From NCBI RefSeq assembly GCF_000378005.1, contig NZ_KB899040.1, positions 1,007,145 through 1,071,144 of the forward strand: 64,000 bases of DNA. The letters are read 5' to 3'. The position numbers and the translations under genes are program-made. The stretch comes from Coprothermobacter platensis DSM 11748 (GTDB lineage: Bacteria; Coprothermobacterota; Coprothermobacteria; Coprothermobacterales; Coprothermobacteraceae). This document shows, piece by piece, positions 47,075 to 58,920 of the stretch (position 1 is its first letter; each line of letters opens with the position of its first letter). Below the pieces are notes generated by a model. It worked only from the letters and a program-made list of their open reading frames with translations, searched no databases and was not told the origin of the DNA.

Positions 47075-47230
47075 GCCCTACCGCCTCCGTGCAGAAAATC
47101 TTGTTCCTTTTAAGTATAAGTCAAAACCATGGTAAGACGAGTAAAGCTCAAAGGCTTATAATAATGAAGGAAGTAATGCGTATTTTACAATACTATATGT
47201 GCATAAACGCACTATCAGGAGGTGAGCCCG

Positions 47231-48142
47231 TTGAACAATTTCGACGAGCTGTTGGAAACAGTAAAGAAAGCAAACCCCGTAAAAGTGTCAGTGGCTCAAG
47301 CGGACGATGAAGAAGTCATCGAAACAGTCAAGATGGCAACAGAGAATGGCATTGCTCAGTTTTATTTAGTAGGCAATGGTAAAGCCATACAGGAAAAATG
47401 CAGTCAACTGCATGTGAATATGAGCCAAGTGGAAATTGTGGATGAGCCTGATTTAGAAAAAACGCCACGAACTGCCGTCTCTTTAGTAAGCAGCGGCAAA
47501 GCACAGGTTCTCATGAAAGGGCTTATCCATACAGCAGATTATCTTAAAGCCGTATTAGATAAGGAAATAGGTCTGAGAAAGGATAAGAGTTTACTCAGTC
47601 ATGTAGGCGTATTTCAAGTTCCGGCTTTTGACCATTTCATTGTTCTTACCGATGCAGCTATGATTATTGCACCAGATCTGGGGCAAAAAGTTTCCATTAT
47701 TGAGAATGCTGTCATGGTGGCAAGAGCCTTGGGCATTGAAACACCTAAGGTAGCAGCCTTGTCGGCCGTCGAAACAGTGAACCCGGACATGCCATCAAGT
47801 GTGGAAGCAGCTATTTTAGCAAAAATGGGTGAAAGGGGCCAAATAAAGAACTGCATCATCGATGGCCCATTAGCCTTTGACAATGCTGTGTCAAAAGAAG
47901 CTGCAGAACACAAAGGTATCCACTCACCTGTCGCAGGCGCCGCCGACATACTACTGGTACCAGACATAGAAGCTGGAAACATACTCTACAAGTCATTTAC
48001 ATATGCTGCAGGTGCCACAATGGCAGGTATTGTTGTGGGTGCAAGGGCACCAATAGTATTGACGAGCCGCGCAGACACCGCTGAGAGTAAGCTTTACTCC
48101 ATAGCATTAGCTGTTCAAGTAGCAAACGCTCAAGTGCGCTAA
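47231..48142 (+). CDS. ptb: Phosphate butyryltransferase family (Ptb/Pta)
   Basis: Exchanges CoA and phosphate on butyryl or branched-chain acyl groups, so that acyl phosphates can yield ATP by kinase action. About 303 residues with QVLMKGLIHTADYLKAVL, GVFQVPAFDHFIVLTDAAM and VPDIEAGNILYKSFTYAAGA, typical of Ptb. No buk gene is adjacent. It fits fermentation of amino acids. The GTG at 47222 is inside AGGAGGTGA; TTG 47231, 5 nt after the SD, is preferred. It is ended by a strong terminator. Confidence 0.88.
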   Translation: MNNFDELLETVKKANPVKVSVAQADDEEVIETVKMATENGIAQFYLVGNGKAIQEKCSQLHVNMSQVEIVDEPDLEKTPRTAVSLVSSGKAQVLMKGLIHTADYLKAVLDKEIGLRKDKSLLSHVGVFQVPAFDHFIVLTDAAMIIAPDLGQKVSIIENAVMVARALGIETPKVAALSAVETVNPDMPSSVEAAILAKMGERGQIKNCIIDGPLAFDNAVSKEAAEHKGIHSPVAGAADILLVPDIEAGNILYKSFTYAAGATMAGIVVGARAPIVLTSRADTAESKLYSIALAVQVANAQVR

Positions 48143-48163: not shown

Positions 48164-48204
48164 AAGTGCAGCACTTTAAGAATGAGGTGCTGCACTTTTT
48201 TTAT
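48164..48204 (+). terminator. Intrinsic terminator of ptb
   Basis: AAGTGCAGCAC (48164-48174) and GTGCTGCACTT (48187-48197), an 11-bp perfect stem followed by a T-run to TTATT. Confidence 0.92.
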
Positions 48205-56661: not shown

Positions 56662-57561
56662 GTGAAAACTGTGCGTGACTATCAGCCTGACCAGCAGCTA
56701 CATCGGTGGTACGTCAATGCTTTTGAGATTACTATAGCAGGTAATGTAATATTGGTCGCTGTTAAAGCTATAGTAGCTTACATAACAAATAGTGCCGCAA
56801 TGTACGCAGAAACGGCAAATTCGGCATCAGATGTGATTTACTCTTTACTGATGGTTTTTGGCTTATGGGTCTCACAGAAGCCACCTGACTCCTCACATCC
56901 CCAAGGGCATAGTCGATTCGAACCTTTGGTAAGCTTAGTAATAGCCCTTTCCATGGGCTTTGCAGGATATGAAGCTGCGCGAACCTCTATCATCAAACTC
57001 ATTTCCGGTGGCGTCATGGTTCAACCAGGATGGCCTTCGCTGGTTATGCTGCTAACGGCAACCACAAAGGTGTTTATGTATTATGCACTGCTGAGGTTTT
57101 CTCAAAAAACGAGAAGCCCCGCTTTGCATGCCACTGCCCAAGACAATTTGGCTGATGTACTGTCATCCACAGCAGCATTTCTTGGCATATTAGGCTCTTA
57201 TTACATAAACCCTTTATTAGATCCAATTGCTGGTCTCTTTGTCTCAGCATGGATATTCAAGGCAGTGGTACCTTTACTGATGGAGAATTTGAAATACATC
57301 ACCGGTGGTTCTGCTACCGAAGAAGACATACAAGGCATACTGGATATAGCTTCAAAAGTTCCCGGAGTGTTGAAAGTCCATGAGCTGGTAACGGAATACG
57401 TAGGTCCTCGCTTGGTCGTAGAAATGCATGTGAACGTGCGAGGAGACTTGCCTTTGTCTGACGCACATCGTATAAGTGATGAAATTGTTAATAATGTAAT
57501 CTCTCATGTAAAGGATGTAGACCGTGTGTATGTCCATTTAGAACCAGAGGATGAAAATTAG
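56662..57561 (+). CDS. Cation diffusion facilitator transporter
   Basis: A 299-residue CDF antiporter that exports Zn2+, Fe2+, Mn2+ or similar ions. It has six membrane segments, the metal site in TANSASDVIYSLL with HPQGHSRFEPL, the second site in ATAQDNLADVLSS, and a C-terminal cytoplasmic ferredoxin-like domain (residues about 210-299). Start GTG 56662 behind TTAGGAGTGAAAAATC. Confidence 0.9.
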   Translation: MKTVRDYQPDQQLHRWYVNAFEITIAGNVILVAVKAIVAYITNSAAMYAETANSASDVIYSLLMVFGLWVSQKPPDSSHPQGHSRFEPLVSLVIALSMGFAGYEAARTSIIKLISGGVMVQPGWPSLVMLLTATTKVFMYYALLRFSQKTRSPALHATAQDNLADVLSSTAAFLGILGSYYINPLLDPIAGLFVSAWIFKAVVPLLMENLKYITGGSATEEDIQGILDIASKVPGVLKVHELVTEYVGPRLVVEMHVNVRGDLPLSDAHRISDEIVNNVISHVKDVDRVYVHLEPEDEN

Positions 57562-57592: not shown

Positions 57593-57631
57593 AAATAGAT
57601 GCGCATACAATAATGTCATGCGCATCTATTT
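57593..57631. repeat. Perfect 14-bp inverted repeat at the start of a phosphatase gene
   Basis: Left arm AAATAGATGCGCAT (57593-57606), 11-nt loop, right arm ATGCGCATCTATTT (57618-57631). The right arm starts exactly at the ATG. A TACAAT -10-like box (57606-57611) lies in the loop region. It could be an operator, or an RNA hairpin hiding the start codon if transcription begins further upstream. Confidence 0.85.
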
Positions 57632-58244
57632 AGTGAGACACCCTGAAACTCAATGGAACAAAGAAAACAGATTCCAAGGCCAAACGGATATCCCCATCAC
57701 AGAAAAAGGACTTCATGACTTGCAAACTGCTGCACCCATATTAGCTTCTTTATCTGTGCAAACTATTTACACAAGTCCGCTAAAAAGGGCGAAAGTCGTT
57801 GCCCAAGAAGTTAGTAAACTAACAGGGAAAGCTTTTCATGAAGACCGTAGAATCATGGAAGTCAATTGCGGCCGTTGGGAAGGAGAAACCGTACCACATC
57901 TCATGCAAGCTGAACCAAATTTAATCGAACAGTGGTGGAAAGATCCCTACAATTTTCAGATTCCTGGTGGAGAAAGTTATGAAGATGTGGAACGAAGGAC
58001 AACATCTTTTCTAAAAGAAATCGTCGATAAAGGTGAAGATGCTTTGGTCGTGAGTCACGGCATAGCCATCCTAACCATGCTCAGGTATGTCCTGCAAATC
58101 CCTAAAAACCATGTCCGCTCTATTCGTATAGACAATTTAGCAATCGTGCGTTTAGATGGCGATGGTAATGGACTAAGTTTATCCATGGTAAACCCAGCTC
58201 GCTTCTTACTAACAAGGACTGAGATTACGAACATTGATGATTAA
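57618..58244 (+). CDS. Histidine phosphatase (PGAM-like), copy 1
   Basis: A 208-residue member of the histidine phosphatase superfamily. The catalytic H8 is in LVRHPETQWN (usually RHGET), the second His in VVSHGIAI, and the acid Glu in EVNCGRWEG. Possible roles are cobalamin-type phosphatase, phosphoglycerate mutase or general phosphatase; the substrate is unknown. No SD; TACAAT ends 6 nt before the ATG, so a leaderless start is likely. A close paralog follows. Confidence 0.85.
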   Translation: MRIYLVRHPETQWNKENRFQGQTDIPITEKGLHDLQTAAPILASLSVQTIYTSPLKRAKVVAQEVSKLTGKAFHEDRRIMEVNCGRWEGETVPHLMQAEPNLIEQWWKDPYNFQIPGGESYEDVERRTTSFLKEIVDKGEDALVVSHGIAILTMLRYVLQIPKNHVRSIRIDNLAIVRLDGDGNGLSLSMVNPARFLLTRTEITNIDD

Positions 58245-58292
58245 GACATTTATTGCTTTTATGAATACTTTCCGTGAATATGGAATTCACAT

Positions 58293-58298
58293 TATAAT
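58293..58298 (+). promoter_or_regulatory. -10 box of histidine phosphatase copy 2
   Basis: TATAAT followed by 7 nt and then the ATG, which points to a leaderless mRNA. A GTGAAT/ATTCAC dyad (58274-58290) lies upstream. The -35 (TTTCCG) is weak. Confidence 0.6.
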
Positions 58299-58305
58299 AT
58301 GAATT

Positions 58306-58920
58306 ATGAGAATTTACTTACTTAGACACCCTGAAACAGATTGGAACGGAGAGTGGCGTTTTCAAGGTCGCACAGATATTCCTATCAGCGAAAAAGGTAT
58401 GAAATCCTTGGAACAAGCGCTTCCCGTATTATGCTCTCTTCCCGTAGAAACCTTATATACGAGTCCATTAAAGCGTGCAAAAATTGTTGCTGAAAAAATA
58501 AGTGAAAAGATGAATATTCCATTCAAAGAAGATGCCAGGATTATTGAAGCTCATTGTGGAGAGTGGGAAGGCAGAAGGGTTCCTGATTTGATGAAAGAAG
58601 AACCAGATTTACTTGGTAAGTGGTGGAAAAACCCATATCTAACACCCATGCCCGGTGGAGAAACATACCAACAAGTTGAACAAAGAACAAGTGCCTTTTT
58701 GGAGGAAGTTATAGAACAAGGCAAAAATGCTTTAGTGGTAAGTCATGGGATCGCTATAACCACCATGCTTCGTTATATATTAGACTTACCGCAGGAAAAA
58801 ACGGGAATATTGAGAATAGAAAACCTTGGTTTAGCAAAAATAGAAATAGACGACTTAGGTAAAGGCTTTGTTATTTCGAACCCTGCCGGCATATTAGATG
58901 TTTTAACCTTTCCCCTATAG
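58306..58920 (+). CDS. Histidine phosphatase (PGAM-like), copy 2
   Basis: A 204-residue paralog of the preceding gene, with the same RHPET catalytic start, EAHCGEWEG, and VVSHGIAITTMLRYIL. The two share most of their sequence and arose by tandem duplication, but each has its own promoter and they have diverged at the C-terminus. Confidence 0.85.
   Translation: MRIYLLRHPETDWNGEWRFQGRTDIPISEKGMKSLEQALPVLCSLPVETLYTSPLKRAKIVAEKISEKMNIPFKEDARIIEAHCGEWEGRRVPDLMKEEPDLLGKWWKNPYLTPMPGGETYQQVEQRTSAFLEEVIEQGKNALVVSHGIAITTMLRYILDLPQEKTGILRIENLGLAKIEIDDLGKGFVISNPAGILDVLTFPL

What the first reader, a model, noticed from the sequence alone, without database searches (positions are those of the whole stretch)
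57593..57631. Perfect 14-bp inverted repeat whose right arm begins at a start codon
AAATAGATGCGCAT and its exact complement are separated by 11 nt. The right arm is codons 1-5 of a histidine phosphatase gene and a -10-like box is in the loop. A 28-base match next to coding constraint is unlikely by chance. It may be a repressor site over the promoter, or an RNA hairpin that hides the AUG.
Basis: seen in the sequence. Interest (0 to 1): 0.6.

Follow-up and report, generated by a model that had tools for sequence, protein, structure and literature searches.

The report
Unconserved palindrome over a leaderless promoter
A perfect 14-base inverted repeat really does straddle the start codon of this Coprothermobacter histidine-phosphatase gene, but related species keep only the promoter box and the protein start and lack the repeat, so it is most likely an evolutionary accident and not a conserved switch.

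Summary
The repeat is exactly as described: AAATAGATGCGCAT (57593-57606), an 11-nt gap, then its exact complement (57618-57631), which is the first 14 bases of a histidine-phosphatase gene. It occurs once in the 1.42-Mb genome. Chance gives about 0.012 such repeats per window (gap ≤40), so it is unusual here, but about 0.27 are expected per genome. In the three same-genus orthologues the coding arm keeps 11 of 14 bases while the left-arm position pairs with it at only 5-7 of 14. What is conserved in the genus is the TACAAT box in the loop, exactly 6 nt before ATG with no Shine-Dalgarno sequence; a more distant relative has TAGAAT, and the downstream paralogues TATAAT, at 6-7 nt. This is the layout of a leaderless promoter. 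A leaderless transcript would lack the left arm, so an AUG-hiding hairpin could act only on read-through RNA from the upstream transporter gene. The half-site shows no regulon-like distribution. Best reading: an ordinary leaderless promoter on which one lineage acquired a palindrome, by chance or by template-switch mutation. A species-specific operator or read-through hairpin is not excluded.

The parts
57593..57606 (+). left arm of inverted repeat, AAATAGATGCGCAT
   Evidence: not conserved in orthologues
57618..57631 (+). right arm, ATGCGCATCTATTT = codons 1-4 and two bases of codon 5 of the phosphatase (MRIYL)
   Evidence: 11 of 14 bases conserved in three orthologues
57606..57611 (+). predicted -10 box TACAAT, 6 nt before ATG; predicted leaderless promoter
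   Evidence: identical in the three same-genus orthologues, TAGAAT at the same distance in G004
57618..58244 (+). histidine phosphatase superfamily branch 1 gene (208 aa); best NCBIfam model alpha-ribazole phosphatase CobC, below cut-off
58306..58920 (+). tandem histidine phosphatase paralogue (204 aa)
58293..58298 (+). TATAAT, 7 nt before the paralogue's ATG; same leaderless layout
56662..57561 (+). cation diffusion facilitator transporter; no terminator-like site found between it and the phosphatase

Best explanation
The conserved element is a sigma-70-type -10 box placed so that transcription starts at or next to the A of the ATG, giving a leaderless mRNA for the phosphatase, without a Shine-Dalgarno sequence. 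The inverted repeat on top of it is specific to this species. It most likely arose when the poorly constrained bases upstream of the -10 box came to match the coding start, either by chance or in one template-switch (quasipalindrome) mutation copied from the coding arm, and has no conserved regulatory role. Shown: the repeat, its absence in relatives, conservation of the box and spacing. Inferred: transcription start, leaderless translation, mutational origin, lack of function.
For: Box 6 nt before ATG in the window gene and four orthologues, and 6-7 nt in the paralogues, with no Shine-Dalgarno sequence. TANNNT at -12/-13 before first ATGs is about twice the internal-ATG rate in two Coprothermobacter genomes: 8.5% vs 4.3% and 9.4% vs 3.8%. 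Published surveys read a TA-like signal about 12 bp before the start codon as leaderless (PMC3160421), and such a -10 motif was tested in Deinococcus (PMC12340547). The left-arm block is among the least conserved parts of the alignment: 5, 5 and 8 of 14 identical to the relatives, versus 16-17 of 25 in the flank upstream. Its length is unchanged, which fits block replacement. Template switching makes imperfect repeats perfect in E. coli (PMC7202029) and can create hairpins in one step (PMC8794818). About 0.27 such repeats are expected by chance per genome.
Against: A perfect 14-bp repeat plus three inner pairs exactly at a promoter and start codon is rare: 0.012 per window, and the longest of 1351 starts. 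No close relative of this species is held, so neither a recent origin nor recent selection can be dated, and the direction of a template switch cannot be polarised. The lower identity of the left arm rests on few bases. No transcription start data. No good -35 box at 17 nt.
Confidence: 0.64

Rival explanations
1. A species-specific operator: a dimeric or tetrameric repressor binds both arms, which flank the -10 box and cover the start point, and blocks RNA polymerase.
For: Position over -10 and start is ideal for repression; the core ATGCGCAT is itself palindromic and repeats 19 bp apart, about two helical turns; rarer than chance per window.
Against: Absent in orthologues. No second site in the genome even with 3 mismatches; paired ATGCGCAT found nowhere else in five genomes. 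Exact half-site AGATGCGCAT occurs at only three other places in the genome. No obvious regulator gene directly beside it.
Confidence: 0.15
2. An RNA hairpin in transcripts that read through from the upstream cation transporter gene: it folds over the AUG and silences the phosphatase on that RNA, or marks the 3' end of the transporter mRNA, while the local leaderless transcript is translated freely.
For: Fold -23.9 kcal/mol, z -8.6; no terminator-like site between the two co-directional genes.
Against: Not conserved although the gene order is. No U-tract follows the stem. Relatives have no equivalent hairpin: -3.2 to -5.7 kcal/mol in the three same-genus orthologues.
Confidence: 0.16

Closest known systems
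Leaderless genes with a TANNNT box about 12 bp before the start codon (PMC3160421; Deinococcus, PMC12340547)
   Same: TACAAT starts 12 bp before ATG; no Shine-Dalgarno; spacing conserved
   Different: Transcription start not mapped; leaderless genes are a minority here; an inverted repeat overlies this one
Quasipalindrome / template-switch mutations (PMC7202029, PMC8794818)
   Same: A perfect inverted repeat where relatives have an imperfect, length-matched block
   Different: Relatives are too distant to reconstruct the single event; chance is not excluded
Promoter-overlapping repressor operators
   Same: Dyad flanks the -10 and covers the start point
   Different: No conservation, no regulon, no regulator identified

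Membership tests
Leaderless promoter / gene | TANNNT about 12 bp upstream of the start codon | tested here: met
   12 bp in the window gene and in four orthologues
Leaderless promoter / gene | no Shine-Dalgarno sequence | tested here: met
   and read directly
Leaderless promoter / gene | transcription starts at or within a few nt of the start codon | not testable with these tools
   needs 5'-end mapping
Repressor operator | dyad conserved in orthologous promoters | tested here: not met
   5, 5, 7 of 14 pairs
Repressor operator | further copies of the site at other promoters | tested here: not met
   single-site regulators remain possible
Repressor operator | bound by a protein | not testable with these tools
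   needs a binding experiment
RNA hairpin regulator of translation | pairing conserved or covarying | tested here: not met
RNA hairpin regulator of translation | member of a described RNA family | tested here: not met
   no Rfam match up to E = 1
Template-switch palindrome | cluster of changes explained by one reverse-complement copy of a nearby segment | tested here: inconclusive
   left-arm block divergent and same length, but no close outgroup
Intrinsic terminator | GC-rich stem followed by a U-tract | tested here: not met
   not listed; no U-tract after the stem

The most novel reading that the evidence does not exclude
One DNA palindrome sorts two transcripts of the same gene: the leaderless transcript starts inside it and is translated, while read-through RNA from the metal transporter gene folds it and keeps the AUG closed.
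Probability: 0.06. Interest if true: 0.5.

Novelty: new member of a known kind. Interest (0 to 1): 0.17.

Why it matters
It shows how a striking palindrome at a gene start can be real and yet unconserved, and it identifies a conserved leaderless-type promoter in Coprothermobacter, for which the paper search found no study of leaderless genes. If the hairpin did act, it would be a simple way to let only one of two transcripts be translated.

Tried and rejected
Regulon search with full site, half-site and paired 8-mer, with mismatches: nothing regulon-like. Rfam: no match. Terminator: not supported. A common dyad in the downstream paralogue's promoter: it has a different AT-rich near-palindrome (AATTCACATTATAATATGAATT) with no shared motif, so not treated as the same element. 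A shared dyad around the -10 box in relatives: only short imperfect pairing with a different centre. The apparent total separation of SD and -10 genes (0 of 104) is partly built in, because both motifs occupy the same bases; I rely on the internal-ATG control instead. One search gave a larger enrichment with a smaller start set; the more cautious figure is used. One HTH family search (PF02954) was empty and says little.

Full report
OBSERVATION. The repeat is present exactly as reported: AAATAGATGCGCAT at 57593-57606, loop ACAATAATGTC at 57607-57617, and the exact complement ATGCGCATCTATTT at 57618-57631. The right arm is the start of a 208-aa ORF beginning MRIYLVRHPET, histidine phosphatase superfamily branch 1. 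The best NCBIfam model is alpha-ribazole phosphatase, below its cut-off (147.5 vs 162.9 bits). There is no in-frame alternative start just upstream, and MxIYLxRHPxT is the N-terminus in relatives, so the start is sound. The pattern occurs once in the genome.

CHANCE. In 1043 third-order Markov versions of the window, perfect 14-bp repeats with loops of 3-40 nt occurred at 0.012 per window, and at 0.007 with loops up to 20. The real window has two repeats of 11 bp or more; the other, at 48164, is a terminator-like hairpin ending in a T-run. Scaled to 1.42 Mb, about 0.27 are expected. Across 1351 candidate starts from 404 kb of two genomes this is the longest at a start codon, followed by one terminator-like 13-bp repeat (listed under two start codons) and a 10-bp one. 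By folding energy of -40..+25 it ranks third of 605 starts sampled from its genome. So it is an outlier of roughly the one-in-a-hundred kind for the window, picked after seeing it, and chance is not excluded. Folding adds three inner pairs with one bulge.

ORGANISM AND RELATIVES. From memory, the 1,424,912-bp single contig of G001 fits C. proteolyticus DSM 5265, and the window species may be C. platensis; neither was tested. Only three other same-genus genomes and one same-family genome were offered.

CONSERVATION. Aligned without gaps from GTTAACACT to the coding region, the window and G001, G002, G003 compare as follows. Coding arm: 11 of 14 identical in each. Left arm: 5, 5 and 8 of 14. Upstream flank: 17, 16 and 17 of 25. 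Complementarity of left-arm position and coding arm: 14 of 14 in the window, 5, 5 and 7 in the relatives. Allowing the best synonymous coding arm raises this only to 8, 8 and 10. The fold energies of the three same-genus starts are -3.2 to -5.7 kcal/mol against -24.1 for the window.

WHAT IS CONSERVED. The TACAAT in the loop is identical in the three same-genus orthologues and is TAGAAT in the same-family genome, in every case exactly 6 nt before ATG. The paralogues that follow have TATAAT at 6-7 nt. None shows a Shine-Dalgarno sequence by eye. A -10 hexamer so placed puts the transcription start at about the A of ATG. Genome surveys treat TANNNT around 12 bp upstream as the mark of leaderless genes (PMC3160421); in Deinococcus radiodurans this was tested experimentally, with spacing requirements (PMC12340547). 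In the sampled parts of two Coprothermobacter genomes, TANNNT at -12/-13 is about twice as frequent before first ATGs as before internal ATGs (19/223 vs 60/1382; 11/117 vs 25/658). Leaderless genes are therefore probably a minority class here.

CONSEQUENCE FOR THE TWO PROPOSED MECHANISMS. If transcription starts at the AUG, the left arm is not in the message, so the hairpin cannot hide the AUG on it. It could form only in read-through RNA from the cation transporter gene (56662-57561), which runs the same way with no terminator-like site between. A repressor site would be well placed, but the full site has no second copy within three mismatches, the paired 8-mer occurs nowhere else in five genomes, and the half-site AGATGCGCAT has three further copies in the genome, one of them inside an ORF at about window 61062.

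MECHANISM PREFERRED. An ordinary leaderless promoter whose upstream bases, under little constraint, came to mirror the gene start in one lineage. One template-switch event would explain a same-length, strongly changed block that copies the coding arm; this mutation class is established in E. coli (PMC7202029) and proposed as a source of new hairpins (PMC8794818). Step-by-step chance is the alternative. The data do not separate them because no close outgroup is held.

VERDICT. Observation confirmed; regulatory interpretation not supported across relatives; lineage-specific function possible but unproven.

Noticed in passing
window 11994 (+), 28919 (-), 58306 (+); L038:14577 (-), L041:13051 (+): Other genes with TATAAT 6-8 nt before ATG and no Shine-Dalgarno sequence; leaderless candidates in Coprothermobacter.
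   Followed up: partly
window 58284-58305: Near-perfect 22-nt AT-rich palindrome AATTCACATTATAATATGAATT around the -10 box of the second phosphatase; no shared motif with the first.
   Followed up: partly
window 57618-58920: Two tandem histidine phosphatases (55% identical) kept as a pair downstream of a cation transporter in same-genus genomes.
   Followed up: partly
window 48164-48197: Terminator-like 11-bp hairpin with T-run after a phosphate acetyl/butyryltransferase-like ORF (47222-48142; family not searched).
   Followed up: no
L041:10555-10586: 13-bp hairpin overlapping a candidate start; looks like a terminator and the start may be misassigned.
   Followed up: no
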